64,000 bases of DNA from Solirubrobacter deserti. Lineage in GTDB: Bacteria; Actinomycetota; Thermoleophilia; Solirubrobacterales; Solirubrobacteraceae. The stretch is from NCBI RefSeq assembly GCF_027587175.1, contig NZ_JAPCID010000006.1, forward strand, positions 62,001-126,000, given 5' to 3'. Each line of letters begins with the position of its first letter. The stretch's first letter is position 1. Below the pieces are notes generated by a model. It was not told where the DNA came from, made no database searches, and saw nothing but the letters and a program-made list of their open reading frames with translations. The position numbers and the translations under genes were made by a program. This document shows positions 21,197-64,000 of this stretch, one piece after another.

Positions 21197-23431
21197 ATGA
21201 AGCGACTGGTGGGTGCGTTGCTGCTCGCGATGGCGGCGTGCGCGTCGACGGCGCAGGCGCAGACGACGCCGCAGTACGACTACGACGGAGCCATCCGCGA
21301 GCGGGTGTACATCCCGAACGGCCTGGACGCCGACCGCGACGGCACGGAGGACCGCACCGCGATCGAGATCATGCGGCCGAAAGAGCTGGCGAAGGACGTG
21401 CCGGCGATCATCGCGCCGAGCCCGTACTACACGAGCGCGTGCGGCCAGTTCGTCGGTGAGTGCATCGGCGACCTGGACGGCGACGGCATCAACGACCGCT
21501 GGCCGCTGTGGTACGACAACTTCTTCGTGCCGCGCGGGTACGCCGTGATCCTGGCCGAGATGGGCGGCACGGCGAACTCCACCGGCTGCGCGACCAACGG
21601 CGGCAAGGAGGACGTGCAGTCCACCAAGGTCGTGATCGACTGGCTCAACGGCCGCATCCCGGGCTACGACAAGGCCGGCGCGCCCGTCACGGCCACCTGG
21701 CACAGCAAGAAGGCGGCGATGATCGGCCGCTCCTACAACGGCACGCTGCCCAACGCGGTGGCGGCGACCGGCGTCGAGGGCCTGACCACGATCGTCCCGA
21801 TCGCCGCGATCAGCTCCTGGTACGACTACAGCCGCATGGGCGGGATCATCGGTGGCACCGCCCACTACCCGGCGTGGCTGGCCAACTTCGTCACGGACGA
21901 GCCCCGCCGCGCGCTGTGCGCCGCGGTCCGCGACGACATGTCCCTGCTCGACGGCGACGCCGACGGCAACATGAACGCGTTCTGGGACGAGCGCAACTAC
22001 CGCCCGGACGCCTCCAAGGTCAAGGCGTCCGTGTTCGCCACGCACTGCCTGCAGGACGACAACGTCGACCCGGACCAGACCACCGAGTGGTGGCACGCGC
22101 TCGCGCAGCACAACGTCCCGCGCAAGCTGTGGCTGTGCCGCGAGGGCCACATCGACCCGTTCATGACCAACCGCGCCGAGTGGATGCGCCAGCTGCACGC
22201 CTGGTTCGACCACTGGCTCTACGGCGTCCAGAACGGGATCATGGAGGAGCCACGGGTCGACATCGAGGACACCAAGGACACCTGGGGCAAGTACGCCGAC
22301 TGGCCGCTCCCCGGCAGCGTGAGCACCCCGATCTACCTGCAGGGCGACACGGCGTCGTCCGCCGGCACGCTCGGCGGCCAGACCGGCGGCAAGACGGACA
22401 CGCTCCAGTTCACCGACCTGGCGAACATGAACGAGGCCAACGCGATGAACCTCGCGGCCGGCACCACGCAGACCAACCGCCGCGTGTTCGTGTCCGGCCC
22501 GCTCACCGAGGACGTGCGCGTCTCCGGCTCGCCGGTGATCGACCTGCGCGCCTCCCTCGACAAGCCGCAGTCCAACCTCACCGCGCTGCTCGTCGACTAC
22601 GGCGCGTCCACCCAGATCACACGCTCGGGTGACGGCATCTCCACGCCCGCGAACGCGCCGAGCGACTGCTGGGGCCCGAGCTCCACGCGCACCGGCCCGG
22701 ACGGCCAGGTGATGGACTGGGACTCCTGCTACCAGCAGCCGATCAAGCCCACCGTGACGGTCTCCGAGACCCAGGGCTGGCGCGTCTCGCGCGGCATCCT
22801 GGACTCGTCCAACCGCGAGTCGCTGTACTACGACGTCACCAACACGCCGGGCACGGAGTACCGCTTCCGCTTCCCGATCATGCCGGTGGACTACACGTTC
22901 CCGAAGGGCCACCGGATCGGCGTCGTCATCATCGCCAACCTCAACGCGCTGCAGCGCAACGGCACCACCGGCACGACGGTCACGCTCAACACGAAGCTGA
23001 GCAAGATCGACCTGCCGATCGTCGGCGGGCATGCGGCAGCGGTCCGCGCCGGGGCGATCGCGCCCGTCACGGCGACCGGGACCGTCGGCGGGAGCGTCCC
23101 CGCCACGCTCGCGCTCAGCGTCGGCGGTGCGGCGTTCCCGGCCTTCACGCCGGGCGTCGAGCAGGACTACACGGCGACCACGACCGCCATCGTCACGTCG
23201 AGCGCCGGCGACGCGACGCTCAGCGTCTCCGATCCCGGCCACCTGACCAACGGCGCGTTCTCGCTCACCGACCCGCTGCGGGTGGAGCTGGCCAAGACGA
23301 GCTGGACCGCGCCGACGAGCAACGAGGCCGTCGACGTCACGTTCCGCCAGCGCATCGGCCGCACCGAGCCGCTGCGCACCGGCACCTACGCCCAGACGCT
23401 CACCTTCGCGCTCGCGACGACGAACCCGTGA
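21197..23431 (+). CDS. Secreted S15-family X-Pro dipeptidyl-peptidase with C-terminal module
   Basis: A 744-residue exported protein. It has a signal peptide (MKRLVGALLLAMAACASTAQA) followed by the alpha/beta-hydrolase domain of Xaa-Pro dipeptidyl-peptidases. The nucleophile is Ser179 in MIGRSYNGTLP, with Asp at about 286-290 (CLQDDNVDPDQ) and His318 (CREGHIDPF). A jelly-roll domain follows, with RVSGSPVIDLRASLD. Residues about 631-744 are a separate beta-rich module almost identical in pattern to the end of the rhamnosidase at 23846-27229. GGGGGG-type ribosome site lies before the ATG. It probably cleaves proline-containing peptides or related amides outside the cell. Confidence 0.85.
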   Translation: MKRLVGALLLAMAACASTAQAQTTPQYDYDGAIRERVYIPNGLDADRDGTEDRTAIEIMRPKELAKDVPAIIAPSPYYTSACGQFVGECIGDLDGDGINDRWPLWYDNFFVPRGYAVILAEMGGTANSTGCATNGGKEDVQSTKVVIDWLNGRIPGYDKAGAPVTATWHSKKAAMIGRSYNGTLPNAVAATGVEGLTTIVPIAAISSWYDYSRMGGIIGGTAHYPAWLANFVTDEPRRALCAAVRDDMSLLDGDADGNMNAFWDERNYRPDASKVKASVFATHCLQDDNVDPDQTTEWWHALAQHNVPRKLWLCREGHIDPFMTNRAEWMRQLHAWFDHWLYGVQNGIMEEPRVDIEDTKDTWGKYADWPLPGSVSTPIYLQGDTASSAGTLGGQTGGKTDTLQFTDLANMNEANAMNLAAGTTQTNRRVFVSGPLTEDVRVSGSPVIDLRASLDKPQSNLTALLVDYGASTQITRSGDGISTPANAPSDCWGPSSTRTGPDGQVMDWDSCYQQPIKPTVTVSETQGWRVSRGILDSSNRESLYYDVTNTPGTEYRFRFPIMPVDYTFPKGHRIGVVIIANLNALQRNGTTGTTVTLNTKLSKIDLPIVGGHAAAVRAGAIAPVTATGTVGGSVPATLALSVGGAAFPAFTPGVEQDYTATTTAIVTSSAGDATLSVSDPGHLTNGAFSLTDPLRVELAKTSWTAPTSNEAVDVTFRQRIGRTEPLRTGTYAQTLTFALATTNP

Positions 23432-23467
23432 CGATGCGGGCGGCCGCAGACGGGGTACTAGACCTCT

Positions 23468-23830
23468 GTGGCCGCCCCAACCACCCCGCCGCTGACCGCG
23501 GAGATCCTCGACGGGCCCGTGCCCGTCATCCGGGTTCGCGGTGAGCTCGACCTGTCGACCGCGGGACGTCTGTGCCGGACGGTGGGAGCCGTCGCCGGCG
23601 TGCGGCGCCGCATGCGCGTCGTGCTGGACCTGTCGGAGCTGGCGTTCTGCGACTCGACCGGGCTGCGGGCCCTCGTCGGCGCGGTGCGGGAGGTCGAGAT
23701 CAACGGCGGCAGAGCCGCGCTCGTCGCGCCGCCGGGTGGCAAGCTCGCCCGGCTGCTCGACCTGAGCGGGCTCGGGGAGTTCCTGCGCGTCGCGCCCTCG
23801 CGAGACCTGGCGCTTAAGCGTCTTTCCTGA
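23468..23830 (+). CDS. STAS-domain anti-sigma factor antagonist
   Basis: A 120-residue single-domain STAS protein (GTG start). VIRVRGELDLSTAGRLCRTV is the typical first strand-helix, and LAFCDSTGLRALV carries the phosphorylatable serine position. Such proteins bind anti-sigma kinases and free a sigma factor. No anti-sigma or sigma gene is next to it; it sits between the S15 peptidase and the rhamnosidase. A second STAS gene lies just after the rhamnosidase, on the other strand. Confidence 0.88.
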   Translation: MAAPTTPPLTAEILDGPVPVIRVRGELDLSTAGRLCRTVGAVAGVRRRMRVVLDLSELAFCDSTGLRALVGAVREVEINGGRAALVAPPGGKLARLLDLSGLGEFLRVAPSRDLALKRLS

Positions 23831-23845
23831 TCGAATAGCTCCTCA

Positions 23846-26800
23846 ATGAGGAGAGTTCTGATCGCTGCGGTGATCGTTTTGGCCTGCCCGGCCGGCGCGA
23901 TGGCTGCGACACCGGCCGGCCTGACGGTCGAGCACCAGACACAACCGCTGGCGGTTGAAGCCGCGGCGCCGCTGCTCGGATGGCACGGCGCCGGTGACGC
24001 GTACCAGGTCAAGGTCGGCACGAGCCCGCAGAGGCTGGGGGACGTCTGGGACTCGGGGAAGGTGACCTCGAGCGAGTCCGTGAACGTGCCCTACGGCGGC
24101 CCGCCGCTGCCCGCCGCCACGCGCCTGTACTGGACCGTCCGCACGTTCGACGGCGACCGCGCCTCCGCCTACGCGCCGCCGGCGAGCTTCGGGACCGCGG
24201 TCAAGTCGAGCTGGACCGCGACGCCCATCTGGTCCTCCGCGCCGGTCCTCGGCTCCGACTACGACGTCGAGCTCGACTTCACCGTCACCACCGTCGCCGC
24301 CGGCGTCAAGTTCCGCGTCAACGGCCCCAACGCCTTCATGTGGCAGATCCGCGGCGACGCCTCCAACGAGCTGCGCCCCCACGTGCAGGTCAACGGCACC
24401 TACTCGCAGCTGAAGGCCGTCAAGCTGCCGATGACGATCGGGCTCAACACCAAGCACAAGCTGCGCATCAACGCCGCCGGCTCGACCATCCGCACCTACA
24501 TCGACGACGTGCTCGTGGACACGACGGTGGACGCGCGCAACCCGGCCGGGTCGATCGGCTTCCGGCACGGCATGACCGAGTCCGCGCGCTTCGACAACGT
24601 CAAGGTCACCGGCGACCGCGTGCTCTACAGCAACGACTTCACCTCGGCCGGCACGGACTTCGCGTGCGGCTCGGTCAGCAACGGCGAGCTCGTGGTCGGC
24701 ACCGCGCGCGACTGCGCCTACGGCGTCACCGACAACTGGGCCTTCCTGCGCAAGGCGTTCCGCGTCGCCGACAAGCCGATCGCGTGGGCCACGGCGTACG
24801 TCTCCGGGCGCTCGACCGAGCCCGCCCGCCAGTACGTCTTCAAGCTCTCGCTCAACGGCAAGGTGGTCGGCGTCGGGCCCACGCGCGCGATCAACAACGC
24901 GACGCAGACGATGTACAACGCCTACGACGTCACGCCGTTCCTGCAGCCCGGCGACAACGCGCTCGGCGCGCTCGCCTACACGACGACCGACAAGAAGTTC
25001 ATCGCCCAGCTCGTGATCGCCTACGCGGACGGCACGCGCGAGGTGGTCAACTCGGACACGAGCTGGAAGGCGCTCTCGGGCGAGGTCGCACTCCCGCAGG
25101 CCGGCTCGGTCGGCACCAGCTACTACGCCGCGCCGGTGGAGAACATCGACGCGCGCGCCTATCCGAGCGGGTTCGACACGCCCGCCTTCGACGACGCGGC
25201 GTGGGCCGACGCTACCGCGAAGACCGCCATCCAAGGGTTGACGGGCACGCCCGCGGCGAACGTCGAACAGCGGCTGCGCGCGCCCGTGCGCGTGGTCAAG
25301 AAGGCCGACAAGCACTACTTCGTGGACTTCGGCCGGACCGTCGTGGGCGGGATGCAGCTGAGGCTGAGCGGGCCCGGGACGGTCGAGCTGCGCTACGGCG
25401 AGGAGCTCACCGACGCGACCACCGTCGACCACACGATGCGGACCGGCAACACCTACCGCGACGTCTGGACGCTGCGCCCCGGCACGCAGACCCTCAGCCC
25501 GTGGGGCTACCGCGTGTTCCGCTACGCCGAGATCATCGGGGCCGAGCCGGAGGACATCCAGGCCGCGTCGCTCGTGTACCCGTTCGACCCGAACGCGTCG
25601 TCGTGGTCGTCATCCAACGCCGACCTGGACAAGGTCGTCGACTTCAACCGCGAGGGCGTGCGCGAGCTCAACCTCGACCTGCACCTGGACTCGCCGTCCC
25701 GCGAGCGCGCCCCGTACGAGGGCGACAACCTCATCCACATGCTCATCCAGGGCTACACCGACGGCGACTGGACGCTCTCCAAGCACACGCTGCAGTGGCT
25801 CGCCGTGAATGAGACCTGGCCGACGGAATGGCGGCTGGCCAGCATCCTCTCCGCCCACGAGTACTGGCGCAACACGGGCGATCTGAAGGCCGTCGCCGAC
25901 TACTACGAGGACCTGAAGGGGTTCGTGCCGATGCGCTGGATCCGCGCGAGCGACGGCCTCGTGCAGAAGGAGCCGGGCAACAGCTCGCAGGCCAACGGCG
26001 ACCTCGTCGACTGGCCGCAGGGCGAACGCGACGGCTACGTGTTCTCCAACGTCAACACGGTCATCAACGCCTGGTCGTACAAGGCGCTGGCGGACATGGC
26101 GCAGATCGCCGCCGCGCTGGACAAGACCGAGGACGCCGCGACGTGGTCGGCGGCCGCGACGCGGCTCAAGGCCGCCATCAACACGCACCTGTTCGAGAAC
26201 GGCCGCTACAAGGACGGGCTCACCGCGAGCCACGCCTCCGTGCACGCGAGCGTGTTCGCGGTGGCGATGGGCGTCGCCGGTCCCGAGCAGCTCGGCCCGG
26301 CGACGCAGTACATCGCCGAGCGCGGCATCGCGTGCAGCGTCTTCTGCGCGAACTTCCTGATCGACGCGCTCTACGACGGCGGCCGCGCCGAGGACGCCGT
26401 GCGCCTGATGACCAGCACCGGCCAGCGCTCGTGGCTGCACATCATCGAGCAGGGCGCGGGCTCGCCGATGGAGGCGTGGGACCCGGCGCTGAAGTCCAAC
26501 ACGACGTTCTCGCACCCGTGGTCGGCTTCGCCCGCGTACCTGGTGTACCGCGGCGCGCTCGGGATCGAGGCGCTCGAGCCGGGCTACAAGCGTTTCAGCG
26601 TCAAGCCACAGCCGGGCGGGCTCACGCGCGCGGCGGGCACGACGCCGACGGTGCGAGGCGAGGTCGGCGCCGCGTTCGAGCAGCTGCCGTCCGGCCTCGA
26701 CCTCGCCGTGAAGGTGCCGGCCAACAGCACGGCGGTGGTCACGCTGCCGGGCCGGTTCCCGGTCGAGGTCGGCGCGGGCTGCCACCTGCTGTCCACGCGC

Positions 26801-27229
26801 GGCGGCGTGACCGCCGAGAGCGTGCGCGAGTGGGCGACGGCTCAGGGCTGCGTGTTCGAGGCGCCGCCGGTCGACGTCGGCGTAGGCGGCGAGGTGCCGG
26901 CCGTGCTGTCGCTCGCGGTCGGGTCGGCGACCTTCGCCCCGTTCGTCCCAGGCGTGGCGGCCGAGTACACGGCGAACACGACCGCGACGGTCACCTCCAC
27001 CGCGGGTGACGCCGCGCTCTCGGTCTCCGAGCCCGGCCATCTGGCCAACGGTGCGTACGCGCTGCGCGAGCCGCTGCGCGTGGAGCTCGGGAAGGCGGCG
27101 TGGACCGGGCCGGTCGGCAAGGAAGACATCGACGTGACGTTCAAGCAGGCGATCGGCGCGAGCGAGCCGCTGCGCACCGGCCGCTACAGCCGCACGCTGA
27201 CGTTCACGCTCTCGACGACGACGCCGTGA
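23846..27229 (+). CDS. Secreted GH78 alpha-L-rhamnosidase with inserted beta-sandwich and C-terminal module
   Basis: A 1127-residue exported protein with a signal peptide (MRRVLIAAVIVLACPAGAMA). Residues about 25-115 are a fibronectin-like domain. About 130-230 is an inserted laminin-G/DUF1080-like sandwich, with its pieces split around VRVLYSND. The GH78 N-domain runs about 280-420. The catalytic (alpha/alpha)6 barrel starts near DSPSRERAPYEGDN (Asp at about 615), with the second acidic region GAGSPMEAWDP near 870-876. Residues about 1014-1127 are the module shared with the S15 peptidase. It should release terminal rhamnose from plant or bacterial polysaccharide or glycoside. The gene is 15 bases after the STAS gene and may be on its transcript. 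Confidence 0.85.
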   Translation: MRRVLIAAVIVLACPAGAMAATPAGLTVEHQTQPLAVEAAAPLLGWHGAGDAYQVKVGTSPQRLGDVWDSGKVTSSESVNVPYGGPPLPAATRLYWTVRTFDGDRASAYAPPASFGTAVKSSWTATPIWSSAPVLGSDYDVELDFTVTTVAAGVKFRVNGPNAFMWQIRGDASNELRPHVQVNGTYSQLKAVKLPMTIGLNTKHKLRINAAGSTIRTYIDDVLVDTTVDARNPAGSIGFRHGMTESARFDNVKVTGDRVLYSNDFTSAGTDFACGSVSNGELVVGTARDCAYGVTDNWAFLRKAFRVADKPIAWATAYVSGRSTEPARQYVFKLSLNGKVVGVGPTRAINNATQTMYNAYDVTPFLQPGDNALGALAYTTTDKKFIAQLVIAYADGTREVVNSDTSWKALSGEVALPQAGSVGTSYYAAPVENIDARAYPSGFDTPAFDDAAWADATAKTAIQGLTGTPAANVEQRLRAPVRVVKKADKHYFVDFGRTVVGGMQLRLSGPGTVELRYGEELTDATTVDHTMRTGNTYRDVWTLRPGTQTLSPWGYRVFRYAEIIGAEPEDIQAASLVYPFDPNASSWSSSNADLDKVVDFNREGVRELNLDLHLDSPSRERAPYEGDNLIHMLIQGYTDGDWTLSKHTLQWLAVNETWPTEWRLASILSAHEYWRNTGDLKAVADYYEDLKGFVPMRWIRASDGLVQKEPGNSSQANGDLVDWPQGERDGYVFSNVNTVINAWSYKALADMAQIAAALDKTEDAATWSAAATRLKAAINTHLFENGRYKDGLTASHASVHASVFAVAMGVAGPEQLGPATQYIAERGIACSVFCANFLIDALYDGGRAEDAVRLMTSTGQRSWLHIIEQGAGSPMEAWDPALKSNTTFSHPWSASPAYLVYRGALGIEALEPGYKRFSVKPQPGGLTRAAGTTPTVRGEVGAAFEQLPSGLDLAVKVPANSTAVVTLPGRFPVEVGAGCHLLSTRGGVTAESVREWATAQGCVFEAPPVDVGVGGEVPAVLSLAVGSATFAPFVPGVAAEYTANTTATVTSTAGDAALSVSEPGHLANGAYALREPLRVELGKAAWTGPVGKEDIDVTFKQAIGASEPLRTGRYSRTLTFTLSTTTP

Positions 27230-27232
27230 GCG

Positions 27233-27544
27233 CTACTCGCCGAGGAGCGTCGCCAGCCCGGTGATCTCGAGCAGGCGCTGGATGGTGGGGGAAGCCGCTT
27301 TGACCGTGAAGCGGCAGCCCGCCTCCAGCGCCTGCCGGCGCGCCTTGAGCAGCACCGCGACGCCCGTGGTGTCCATGAAGGCGACCTCCGAGAGGTCGAT
27401 CCGCAGCCACTCGGGCTCGGCCTCGAACGCGATCTGGAGCTCGCGGTTGAGCCGCACCGAGGTGAGCAGATCGACCTCTCCGACCACCACCACCGTGGTG
27501 GTCCTGTCCTCGTGCGTCGTGCGCACGTCAAGCCCCGGCGGCAT
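27233..27544 (-). CDS. STAS-domain anti-sigma factor antagonist
   Basis: A 103-residue STAS protein. TVVVVGEVDLLTSVRLNREL begins the fold and VAFMDTTGVAVLL holds the regulatory Thr-Thr at the phosphorylation site. It is not a close copy of the STAS protein at 23468-23830. It converges on the rhamnosidase gene with 3 bases between them and diverges from the PhzF gene, with only 21 bases between start codons. No partner kinase or sigma gene is adjacent. Confidence 0.88.
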   Translation of the reverse strand: MPPGLDVRTTHEDRTTTVVVVGEVDLLTSVRLNRELQIAFEAEPEWLRIDLSEVAFMDTTGVAVLLKARRQALEAGCRFTVKAASPTIQRLLEITGLATLLGE

Positions 27545-27565
27545 ACGACCCGGCACGCTACCGGT

Positions 27566-28381
27566 ATGGCTCGCGCGTTCAAGCAAGTGGATGTCTTCAC
27601 CACCCGGCCGTACTACGGGAATCCGGTCGCCGTCGTGCTCGACGCCGACGGCGTGTCCACCGAGGCGATGCAGCGCTTCGCGCAGTGGACGAACCTCTCC
27701 GAGACGACGTTCGTGCTCCCACCGACCGAGGGCGGCGACTACCGGGTGCGGATCTTCACGCCCACGCAGGAGCTCCCGTTCGCCGGCCATCCGACGCTCG
27801 GCACCTGCCACGCGTGGTTGGAGGCGGGCGGCGTGCCGGCGGGTGAGGACGTGCTGCAGGAGTGCGGGGCCGGGCTCGTCCGGGTGCGGCGCGACGAAGG
27901 CCGCCTGGCGTTCGCGGCGCCGCCGCTGATCCGCTCGGGCCCGGTCGAGGAGGCGGACGTGCGGCACGCGGCCGACGTGCTGCGGATCGCGCGGGAGGAC
28001 ATCGTGGACGCGCAGTGGGCCGACAACGGGCCGGGGTGGATGGCGGTGCTGCTCTCGAGTGCCGAAGCGGTGCTGGCGCTCGAGCCGGGGTTCGTCGACT
28101 TCGACCTGGGCGTGGTCGGCCCGGGCGGAGCGGAGGACTGGGAGCTGCGCGCGTTCTTCCCGCTCAACGGCGCAACGGTCGAGGACCCGGTGACGGGGTC
28201 GCTCAACGCCTCCGTGGCGGAATGGCTGCTGGCGACGGGCCGCGCAAGCGCGCCCTACGTCGCGTGCCAGGGCACCGCGCTCGGCCGCGCGGGGCGGATT
28301 CACGTGTCCCGAGACGACGAGGGTGTCGTGTGGGTCGGCGGCGGCGCGGTGACGTTGATTTCTGGCGAGGTGGCGCTATAG
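27566..28381 (+). CDS. PhzF-family isomerase/epimerase
   Basis: A 271-residue PhzF-like protein. The N-terminal half begins MARAFKQVDVFTTRPYYGNP and has the catalytic-type glutamate Glu46 in TNLSETTFVL. RIFTPTQELPFAGHPTLGTCH and the C-terminal EDPVTGSLNASVAEWL are the paired family motifs. Members isomerise small acids, but most are not phenazine enzymes and the substrate here is unknown. The ATG lies 21 bases from the divergent STAS start. Its stop codon lies inside an operator-like palindrome for the next gene. Confidence 0.88.
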   Translation: MARAFKQVDVFTTRPYYGNPVAVVLDADGVSTEAMQRFAQWTNLSETTFVLPPTEGGDYRVRIFTPTQELPFAGHPTLGTCHAWLEAGGVPAGEDVLQECGAGLVRVRRDEGRLAFAAPPLIRSGPVEEADVRHAADVLRIAREDIVDAQWADNGPGWMAVLLSSAEAVLALEPGFVDFDLGVVGPGGAEDWELRAFFPLNGATVEDPVTGSLNASVAEWLLATGRASAPYVACQGTALGRAGRIHVSRDDEGVVWVGGGAVTLISGEVAL

Positions 28382-61811: not shown

Positions 61812-64000
61812 TTGCAACGCTCTTTCAGCGCGCTGGCGATGGCCGGTGCGGTGACGCTGCTCGCGGCTGCGCCCGCGGGAGCGGTGAACACGGTCACGAC
61901 GGCCAACGGCGCCAACTGGCAGATCCATGATGCGGCGCCACCGATCTTGGACAGCGGGTCGATCCGGGCGATCACCGACAATGCGTTCTACGGCTTCGGC
62001 GGCATCCGGGTCAATGTGGCGGGCATCCCCGCGAGCGACCCCACCGGGCGGCTCAACGGCGAGCTGATGCGCGGCTTCGGGCTGACCTACGACGGCGACG
62101 AGTCGTTCGCCACGACGACGCCCGTCGGGCTCGGCGGCGTGGCCATCAGCCGCACGATCAAGGTCTCCAAGCCGGGGAACTGGACGCGCTGGCTGGACAC
62201 GTTCGCGAACACGACCGGCCGCGCGGTCACGGTCGACGTCACCTTCGGCGGCTCCGCGGGCCAGAACTCCGGCAGCAACCAGAGCAGGGTCACCGGCACT
62301 TCGTCCGGGGACACGGCGATCGACAACACCGACCGCTGGGTCGCGATCAACTCGCCCAACGCGTCCGGGATGAGCACGCGTGGCCCGTCCGCGGTCGTGA
62401 TCGGCTCCACCACGGGCACGTCGAACTTCCAGCGCGACCCGTTCGGCGCACCGCTGCCCACGTCCGGCCTCGAGGCCAACTTCTACGGCTACCGCAACAC
62501 GCTCACGCTCGCGCCGGGCGAGACCGAGTCGCTGCTGCGTTTCGTCGTCGCGGGCCGCACGGAGACGGCGCAGACGAGCGGCGCGCAGACCGCGACGGTC
62601 ACGACCGCCGCGACCGGCCTCGCCGGTGCGCCGGACCTCGCCGGGCTGAGCGCGAGCGCGCTGTGCACCGTCACGAATTTCCAGCTCGCTCAGGACTGCG
62701 CGACCACGCCCGTCCCGCCGCTGCCGACGCTGCCCGAGGCCAAGCCGAAGACCACGTCCGCGGGCTATGACGTGGTCGACAAGTCGATCACGCAGCTCGT
62801 CGCGGACATGGAGTCCGGCCTGACCACGTCGCAGGAGATCACGCGCGCGTACCTGGACCGGATCGAGGCCTACGACAAGGGCCAGTTCGGCTTCCACGCG
62901 TTCATCACGGTCGCCAAGGACGCGATGGAGCAGGCCGCCGCGGCCGACGCCAAGCGCGCAGCGGGGGTCAAGGGCGACCTGCTCGGCGTACCGGTCGTGA
63001 TCAAGGACCTCTACGACACCAAGGACATGCCGACCACCGACGGCTCGCTCGCGTTCGAGGGCTGGCAGCCCAAGCGCGACGCCTTCCAGGTCGCCAAGCT
63101 GCGTGAGGCCGGCGCGATCATCCTCGGCAAGGGCAACATGTCCGAGTTCGCCAACTCCGGCTCCTACAGCGAGTCCGGCTACGGCATGGTGTGGAACGCG
63201 TTCAAGCCGTCCAAGACGTCGCTCGGCTCATCCGGTGGCTCCGCCGTCGCGGTGGCGACCAGCATGGCGGCGTTCGGCATGGGCTCGCAGACCGGCGTGT
63301 CCCTGTACGCGCCGTCCACCGGCGCCTCGCTCGTCACGCTGCGCGGCACGGACGGCATCGCGTCCGGCGCGGGCGTCATGCCGCTCACCTGGCTGCAGGA
63401 CTTCGCGGGCCCGATGGCGCGCACCACGTCCGACATCGCCCGCATCCTCAACGCCACGACCGGCACCGACCCGGACGACCTGTTCACGCTCCACAACAAC
63501 GCGGGCGCCAAGCGCCCAGCCGACTACAAGACCGCGCTCGACGCCAACGCCCTCAAGGGCAAGCGGATCGGCTACCTGCCCGCCGCGTTCACCGGCTCGC
63601 CCAGCTACGGCCAGAGCGACGGCACGATGGAGGCGGTCACGGCGCGCTTCGCCGACATCCAGGCCGCGGGCGCGACGATGGTCGAGCTCACCACCAACCC
63701 GCCGAGCGGCCCCGCCACCGGCACGCTCACCGGCAACCGCACGGAGGAGGGCTGGCAGCAGTACTTCGACCTGCACGAGAACCCGCCGTACACGACCGCG
63801 TCGGGCATCCTGAGCTCGCCCAAGGTCCTGCCGTACAACCGCCAGACGGTCCCGGTCCGCCCGCGCATGACAGCCGAGGACATCCAGAAGGTCCTCACCG
63901 CCCGCGACGGCTACAAGGACCGCATCAAGGCCTGGATGGACGAAAACAACGTCGACGCCGTCGTCTACCCGGGCTTCCGCTCCGACGTCTACGACAACGA
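61812..64000 (+). CDS. Secreted amidase-signature protein with unusual N-terminal domain, cut by window end
   Basis: The frame opens at TTG 61812 and is still open at base 64000 (729 codons visible). AGAGGG lies upstream of the TTG and LQRSFSALAMAGAVTLLAAAPAGA is a signal peptide. Residues about 25-300 are a Thr/Ser/Gly-rich, beta-looking domain I do not recognise. From about 320 the amidase-signature fold begins: catalytic Lys in GVPVVIKDLYD, cis-Ser in GSSGGSAVAVATS and the nucleophile region GSQTGVSLYAPS. It hydrolyses an amide bond outside the cell. The C-terminus, where a shared module might lie, is outside the window. Confidence 0.8.
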   Translation, partial: MQRSFSALAMAGAVTLLAAAPAGAVNTVTTANGANWQIHDAAPPILDSGSIRAITDNAFYGFGGIRVNVAGIPASDPTGRLNGELMRGFGLTYDGDESFATTTPVGLGGVAISRTIKVSKPGNWTRWLDTFANTTGRAVTVDVTFGGSAGQNSGSNQSRVTGTSSGDTAIDNTDRWVAINSPNASGMSTRGPSAVVIGSTTGTSNFQRDPFGAPLPTSGLEANFYGYRNTLTLAPGETESLLRFVVAGRTETAQTSGAQTATVTTAATGLAGAPDLAGLSASALCTVTNFQLAQDCATTPVPPLPTLPEAKPKTTSAGYDVVDKSITQLVADMESGLTTSQEITRAYLDRIEAYDKGQFGFHAFITVAKDAMEQAAAADAKRAAGVKGDLLGVPVVIKDLYDTKDMPTTDGSLAFEGWQPKRDAFQVAKLREAGAIILGKGNMSEFANSGSYSESGYGMVWNAFKPSKTSLGSSGGSAVAVATSMAAFGMGSQTGVSLYAPSTGASLVTLRGTDGIASGAGVMPLTWLQDFAGPMARTTSDIARILNATTGTDPDDLFTLHNNAGAKRPADYKTALDANALKGKRIGYLPAAFTGSPSYGQSDGTMEAVTARFADIQAAGATMVELTTNPPSGPATGTLTGNRTEEGWQQYFDLHENPPYTTASGILSSPKVLPYNRQTVPVRPRMTAEDIQKVLTARDGYKDRIKAWMDENNVDAVVYPGFRSDVYDN

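What the first reader, a model, noticed from the sequence alone, without database searches (positions are those of the whole stretch)
23089..27229. Two secreted enzymes share one C-terminal module
The last about 115 residues of the S15 peptidase and of the GH78 rhamnosidase are strongly alike (VPAxLxLxVG.A.F..F.PGV..xYTAxTTA.V.S.AGDA.LSVS.PGHL.NGA, ending LTF.L.T). The catalytic domains are unrelated. The module could bind the cell wall or a surface polymer, or mark a sorting route used by many exported proteins of this bacterium.
Basis: seen in the sequence. Interest (0 to 1): 0.65.

Follow-up and report, generated by a model that had tools for sequence, protein, structure and literature searches.

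The report
C-terminal docking tag on secreted enzymes
A soil bacterium (Solirubrobacter) ends about 106 different proteins, nearly all of them secreted, with the same 115-residue module, which most likely plugs each of them into a dedicated partner protein at the cell surface, a relative of a gut-bacterium protein that holds surface proteins on the cell.

Summary
The last ~115 residues of the S15 peptidase and the GH78 rhamnosidase are 63% identical (E 3e-37), while the rest is unrelated. The genome holds 106 copies, and all 106 stop exactly at the protein's C-terminus; the last residue was Pro in the 105 tabulated. Signal peptides were found on 99. The cargo is diverse: ~34 unrelated N-terminal clusters, including M14, S15, GH78, GH10, amidase and ThuA. 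All six Solirubrobacter genomes searched give 82-183 matches; outside the genus copies are few. No Pfam or NCBIfam model matches the module.

In genomes with 1-4 copies the module gene mostly sits beside a secreted two-Ig-domain protein. Every Solirubrobacter genome keeps 3-4 such genes, two of them flanking a stand-alone module protein. The partner's predicted structure matches first E. faecium WxLIP, solved bound to a WxL protein (Z 15.9), then PapD/FimC chaperones (Z 12-14). The module's model resembles chaperone-usher pilin domains (Z 8.6).

Best reading: a WxL-like, pilin-fold C-terminal docking module captured by WxLIP-like partners, hugely expanded in this genus. Binding, location and strand complementation are inferred, not shown. 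Membership in the WxL sequence family (PF13731) was tested and not met.

The parts
21197..23431 (+). Exported S15 (X-Pro dipeptidyl-peptidase type) peptidase, 744 aa, carrier of the module
   Evidence: PF02129 7.1e-47, PF08530 3e-32; signal peptide MKRLVGALLLAMAACASTAQAQ
23081..23428 (+). C-terminal module of the S15 peptidase; stop codon follows at 23429-23431
   Evidence: Profile match E 3e-58, model positions 2-118 of 118 (contig C93:275418-275765)
23846..27229 (+). Exported GH78 alpha-L-rhamnosidase, 1127 aa, carrier of the module
   Evidence: PF17389 2.3e-39 and other rhamnosidase domains; signal peptide MRRVLIAAVIVLACPAGAMAA
26879..27226 (+). C-terminal module of the rhamnosidase; stop codon follows at 27227-27229
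   Evidence: Profile match E 4.5e-58 (contig C93:279216-279563); AlphaFold2 model pLDDT 85.7
61812..64000 (+). Third carrier, amidase-like, cut by the window end; its module lies 251-601 bases beyond the end (contig C93:316588-316938)
   Evidence: Open frame read; module match E 1.6e-61; amidase assignment rests on sequence resemblance, with amidase (PF01425) found in 5 carriers

Best explanation
The module is a C-terminal docking (sorting/anchoring) domain. SHOWN by sequence: it ends 106 proteins of one genome with nothing after it; the great majority have signal peptides and their N-terminal parts are mostly unrelated. The genus encodes a small set of secreted partner proteins, two of which flank a stand-alone module protein; in low-copy genomes partner and module genes are mostly adjacent. 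PREDICTED: the module is a six-strand pilin-type beta-sandwich that ends at its last strand, so it may lack the seventh strand; the partner has two Ig-like domains with the fold of WxLIP and PapD/FimC. INFERRED mechanism: after export the partner grips the module, probably through its exposed last strand and free C-terminus (which would explain the fixed Leu at -6 and Pro at -1), and holds the enzyme at the cell envelope, as WxLIP is thought to hold WxL proteins in Enterococcus.
For: 106/106 copies end the protein exactly; 105/105 tabulated end in Pro with Leu at -6, and 5150 of 5151 module pairs are alike against 318 of 5151 N-terminal pairs. 99/106 have a signal peptide by heuristic. 82-183 matches in each of six Solirubrobacter genomes. 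Co-occurrence over 150 genomes of the order: 7 of 8 module genomes have a partner, against 14 of 150 overall (hypergeometric 9e-8, relatedness not corrected). Gene adjacency in G100, G121, G489 and at two loci of G524; partner-module-partner cluster in all six Solirubrobacter genomes. Partner model: WxLIP 9i25_C ('bound to long WxL') Z 15.9 over 216 residues, then PapD/FimC-type chaperones Z 12-14; Foldseek 1e-8 to 1e-7. Profile-profile partner vs Firmicutes WxLIP: 222 colinear columns, score 41 against at most 17 for shuffled columns. The partner profile reaches an unquestioned WxLIP (L247, both Pfam WxLIP domains above cut-off). Module model: nearly all top PDB neighbours are chaperone-usher pilin domains, best CsuA/B Z 8.6, rmsd 2.5 over 104 residues. 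The module is homologous to ~180-aa stand-alone proteins encoded next to WxLIP-like genes elsewhere in Actinomycetota (hhalign 97-98%). Precedent: WxL is always C-terminal, in clusters of small WxL + large WxL + WxLIP (PMC9772566, PMC10599100).
Against: No direct binding or localisation data. The complex was not modelled. Module-to-WxL homology is not significant by sequence. The module's fold match is only just above the level of common arrangements (Z 8.6). Solirubrobacter partners lack the C-terminal membrane helix of WxLIP, so how they are held on the cell is unknown. Most carriers are far from partner genes. One exported S15-like protein lacks the module (L290). The genomes sharing module and partner are relatives, so co-occurrence is not independent evidence.
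Confidence: 0.62

Rival explanations
1. The module itself binds peptidoglycan or another envelope polymer directly, without needing the WxLIP-like partner; the partner acts on other proteins.
For: WxL domains are described as peptidoglycan-binding (PMC10599100 abstract). Some weaker structural neighbours of the module are parts of sialidases annotated with a carbohydrate-binding module. Carriers are scattered over the genome, as expected of a self-sufficient anchor.
Against: Genetic linkage and co-occurrence with a WxLIP/PapD-like partner. No carbohydrate-binding family matches. Fixed C-terminal Pro and zero tail are not needed for polymer binding.
Confidence: 0.2
2. The module is a targeting signal for a dedicated export or processing route: it is recognised and perhaps removed, in the manner of type IX secretion C-terminal domains, rather than serving as a permanent anchor.
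For: Strict C-terminal position on ~100 diverse exported proteins; carriers already have ordinary signal peptides, as type IX cargo does (own knowledge).
Against: No route of this kind is known in Actinomycetota to my knowledge; the linked gene is a WxLIP/PapD-like binder, not a protease or transporter. No cleavage data.
Confidence: 0.1
3. The module is a passive Ig-like spacer or stabiliser that spread by duplication, without a specific partner.
For: All-beta sandwich of modest fold specificity; Ig-like spacers are common in secreted enzymes.
Against: A spacer would not be confined to the C-terminus in 106 of 106 proteins or keep the last residue fixed; linkage to partner genes.
Confidence: 0.06

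Closest known systems
WxL / WxLIP surface protein system of Firmicutes (PF13731, PF06030 + PF11797)
   Same: Exported proteins with one C-terminal beta-sandwich module; a stand-alone small module protein and larger carriers; two-Ig-domain partner whose best structural match is E. faecium WxLIP bound to WxL; aromatic-x-Leu in the last strand (FTL for WTL).
   Different: No PF13731 hit and no significant profile match to WxL; first W motif absent; partner lacks the C-terminal membrane helix; [quoted passage not shown] actinobacterial.
Chaperone-usher pilins and PapD/FimC chaperones (archaic Csu type nearest)
   Same: Module model aligns best with CsuA/B and other pilin domains; partner model aligns with PapD/FimC-type chaperones; module ends at its last strand; tip adhesins such as FimH have the same layout (functional domain + C-terminal pilin domain; own knowledge).
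   Different: No sequence similarity detected; carriers are mostly enzymes, not fibre subunits; an usher was not searched for.
Type IX secretion C-terminal domains (Bacteroidota) and LPXTG sorting signals
   Same: One C-terminal module or signal shared by very many exported proteins of one genome.
   Different: No LPXTG motif, hydrophobic stretch or positive tail after the module; type IX secretion belongs to diderm Bacteroidota (own knowledge) and no link was tested.

Membership tests
WxL domain (PF13731) | Sequence match to the family profile | tested here: not met
   PF13731 search of own genome: 0 matches at E<=10 although the Lactococcus control rings; hhalign to 12-16 Firmicutes WxL proteins aligns only 13-15 C-terminal columns, Prob 2.5-5%
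WxL domain (PF13731) | Dual Trp-x-Leu motif | tested here: not met
   Solirubrobacter modules have mostly A-x-L at the first and F-T-L at the second position; related small proteins in G405, G272, G283 and G176 do carry W-[ST]-L at the first
WxL domain (PF13731) | Always the C-terminal domain of exported proteins | tested here: met
   106/106 C-terminal; 99/106 signal peptide by heuristic
WxL gene cluster | Small module protein + larger module protein + WxLIP encoded together | tested here: inconclusive
   Such an arrangement, with a small protein resembling the module, in G100 and G121 (HtaA-like carrier); in Solirubrobacter the cluster is partner + small module + partner and the carriers are elsewhere
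WxLIP (PF06030 + PF11797) | Pfam profiles above cut-off | tested here: not met
   Solirubrobacter partners: no hit above cut-off; a distant homolog, L247, passes both
WxLIP (PF06030 + PF11797) | Two tandem Ig-like domains with the WxLIP arrangement | tested here: met
   AlphaFold2 model; best PDB match WxLIP 9i25_C Z 15.9, 216 of 251 residues
WxLIP (PF06030 + PF11797) | C-terminal transmembrane helix | tested here: not met
   Solirubrobacter partners end with domain 2; homologs in G405, G480 and G272 have a third domain and a membrane helix
WxLIP (PF06030 + PF11797) | Binds the C-terminal module | not testable with these tools
   Needs a complex model or a pull-down
Chaperone-usher pilin domain | Incomplete Ig fold ending at strand F, completed by a donor strand | tested here: inconclusive
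   Six strands, ends at the last; pilins top the structure list, Z 8.6; groove not examined
LPXTG sortase substrates | LPXTG motif, hydrophobic stretch, positive tail at the C-terminus | tested here: not met
   All copies end with the beta strand ...T-F-T-L-S-T-T-x-P-stop, with small variation
Type IX secretion C-terminal domain | Match to a T9SS C-terminal domain profile and presence of the T9SS machinery | not tested
   No specific machinery search was made; the module matched no NCBIfam or Pfam model
Known Ig-like, carbohydrate-binding or choice-of-anchor domain in Pfam or NCBIfam | Profile match | tested here: not met
   No family at E<=10 for either isolated module in Pfam; NCBIfam only a 0.028 match far below its cut-off

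The most novel reading that the evidence does not exclude
A display pathway in monoderm Actinomycetota in which about 100 proteins per genome, mostly enzymes, are captured after export by PapD/WxLIP-like proteins through strand complementation of a pilin-like C-terminal module, reading the free C-terminus as chaperones read pilins: an enzyme coat built with chaperone-pilin chemistry but without an usher.
Probability: 0.3. Interest if true: 0.8.

Novelty: new variant of a known kind. Interest (0 to 1): 0.63.

Why it matters
No description of this system was found in the papers searched. If right, a WxL-type display system has been turned in one soil genus from a few surface proteins into a general surface-display device for about a hundred, and a ~116-residue tag with four candidate partners per genome can be tested directly. 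It would give a WxL-like system outside Firmicutes, a portable tag for enzyme display in Actinomycetota, and an evolutionary bridge between WxLIP and chaperone-usher pairs, whose folds both the partner and (more weakly) the module share.

Tried and rejected
Pfam/NCBIfam naming of the module: nothing. PF13731 and PF06030 in the own genome: nothing. PDB sequence search with the module profile: nothing credible; with the partner profile: nothing. WxL-module profile comparison, also through the actinobacterial small proteins: not significant, so WxL membership is not claimed. WxL chain 9i25_A was not among the 50 listed structural neighbours of the module, which excludes nothing. Test 'all exported S15 carry it': the six best S15 all do, one more distant exported S15-like protein does not, and the other five distant hits were not resolved. 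Literature searches for a Solirubrobacter module or actinobacterial WxL found nothing on this system. Promoter/terminator scan between the two genes: empty. The genome-contig scan found only four loci, all Solirubrobacter, because it reaches close relatives only. Considered and ranked low: LPXTG sorting, type IX-like export signal, passive Ig spacer (see rivals).

Full report
OBSERVATION. The two genes are as described: an exported S15 peptidase (21197-23431) and an exported GH78 rhamnosidase (23846-27229). BLASTP of the full proteins gives one significant alignment, 66/104 identical, E 3e-37, confined to the C-terminal module. Pfam finds the catalytic domains and nothing over the module; the isolated modules match no Pfam family at E<=10 and no NCBIfam model credibly.

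COPY NUMBER AND POSITION. The module alone hits its own 7.55-Mb genome over and over. After joining split pieces there are 106 copies. I fetched all of them and read each frame: in 106 of 106 the module ends exactly at the stop codon. In the 105 copies tabulated the last residue is always Pro and the residue at -6 always Leu; the rest of the last strand is T-F-T-L-S-T-T-x-P with small variation. A simple signal-peptide heuristic accepts 99 of 106 carriers; seven were not accepted, including one 64-aa fragment, and some of these may have disturbed reading frames.

WHAT IT ENDS. All but one of 5151 module pairs are similar at E<1e-5, against 318 of 5151 pairs of N-terminal parts. At E<1e-10 the 102 N-terminal parts form 34 unrelated clusters, the largest with 36 members, probably linked in part by shared accessory domains. 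Of 100 scanned, families include ThuA 14, M14 carboxypeptidase 13, CBM6 13, glucose/sorbosone dehydrogenase 11, S15 6, GH78 6 and amidase 5, with GH10, subtilase, GDPD, M64 and metallophosphoesterase among others. The six best-scoring S15 peptidases of the genome all carry it; one more distant exported S15-like protein does not. A third carrier, amidase-like, begins at 61812 and runs off the window end.

DISTRIBUTION. All six genomes of the genus have 82-183 matches (some copies count as two matches, since split pieces are listed apart). The only named hits of a collection scan are Solirubrobacter species. Of 150 genomes of the order, five non-Solirubrobacter genomes have 1-4 matches, one of them weak; of 396 genomes of the phylum almost none do. 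A broader profile adds G272 and a few weak ~180-aa stand-alone proteins. The mass use of the module is therefore genus-specific as far as searched.

THE PARTNER. Genomes with few copies were used to look for neighbours. In G100 an HtaA-like carrier is followed, with overlapping start and stop codons, by a second secreted protein and a 143-aa secreted protein resembling the module, then after a short gap by a 262-aa secreted protein; G121 has the same order. The last protein has four homologs in the own genome. Two of them flank a 168-aa stand-alone module protein at contig C93:400187-402401. The partner-module-partner cluster is present in all six Solirubrobacter genomes, and partner and module genes are neighbours in G100, G121, G489 and at two loci of G524. 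Among 150 genomes of the order, 7 of the 8 module genomes have the partner, against 14 of 150 overall (hypergeometric 9e-8; these genomes are relatives, so the figure overstates independence).

WHAT THE PARTNER IS. It has no Pfam family above cut-off. Its profile reaches L247 in the same order (E 5e-7), which is an unquestioned WxLIP by both Pfam domains. Profile-profile comparison with ten Firmicutes WxLIP proteins taken from annotated plasmids aligns 222 columns colinearly, score 41 against a maximum of 17 for 40 column-shuffled controls. Its AlphaFold2 model (pLDDT above 90 over most of the mature part) matches first the solved E. faecium WxLIP 'bound to long WxL' (9i25_C, Z 15.9, 216 residues, rmsd 4.9) and then PapD/FimC-type chaperones at Z 12-14 (Foldseek 1e-8 to 1e-7). 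Homologs in G405, G480 and G272 have a third domain and a C-terminal membrane helix; Solirubrobacter partners end after domain 2.

WHAT THE MODULE IS. Its AlphaFold2 model is a six-strand beta-sandwich (pLDDT 85.7). Nearly all of its best PDB neighbours are chaperone-usher pilin domains, best CsuA/B (Z 8.6, rmsd 2.5 over 104 residues; Foldseek best E 3.6e-3). This is suggestive, not conclusive. The module is homologous to the small stand-alone proteins beside WxLIP-like genes in other Actinomycetota (hhalign 97-98% over 136 columns; loci read). Several of these carry a Trp-[Ser/Thr]-Leu at the place of the first WxL motif (aligned). A direct profile link to Firmicutes WxL is not significant, so membership in the WxL sequence family is not claimed.

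MECHANISM. Shown: an always-C-terminal module on ~100 diverse proteins, nearly all exported, and a small set of genetically linked partner proteins. Predicted: pilin-like module fold; WxLIP/PapD-like partner fold. Inferred: after export the partner binds the module, probably along its last strand and free C-terminus, and keeps the enzyme at the envelope. The exact C-terminal end is what would be expected if the C-terminus is read, as PapD reads pilins (own knowledge of the chaperone-usher field, not tested here). [quoted passage not shown]). How the Solirubrobacter partner is itself held on the cell is open.

NOVELTY. The kind of system is known (WxL/WxLIP). [quoted passage not shown] I found no paper describing it, within an open-access library only.

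Noticed in passing
window ~23467-23832 (+) and 27233-28303 (-): A short STAS-domain (anti-sigma factor antagonist-like) ORF lies between the S15 and GH78 genes, and another STAS-like reading frame lies at the end of the minus-strand ORF after GH78, so the two enzymes are not one operon.
   Followed up: no
L197:11749-12924 (own genome, contig C93 ~403748-404923, minus strand): A protein of repeated GGxGxD-type (calcium-binding, hemolysin-type) motifs is encoded close to the partner-module-partner cluster.
   Followed up: no
L188:7070-8329 and L189:9310-10542: In two other genera the only detected module carrier has an HtaA-like (heme uptake) domain; in L188 it lies near genes resembling an ABC metal/heme importer, suggesting that the original role was holding a heme-uptake protein on the surface.
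   Followed up: partly
L272, L273, L274, L280, L283: Across Actinomycetota, ~180-aa secreted proteins related to the module, some with a W-[ST]-L motif, sit next to WxLIP-like genes, mostly with a membrane helix, that pass no Pfam WxLIP cut-off: a widespread, unnamed WxL-like pair.
   Followed up: partly
carriers of alignment A8 (L141-L185, own genome): ThuA-like domains are the commonest cargo family (14 of 100 scanned carriers); carriers can be very long multidomain proteins (up to ~2,700 aa), with PKD, CBM6 and sugar-dehydrogenase domains common in the set.
   Followed up: no
L108, L111, L121, L142, L147, L158, L183: Seven carriers lack an identifiable signal peptide in the open frame; possible frameshifts or fragments in the draft assembly.
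   Followed up: no
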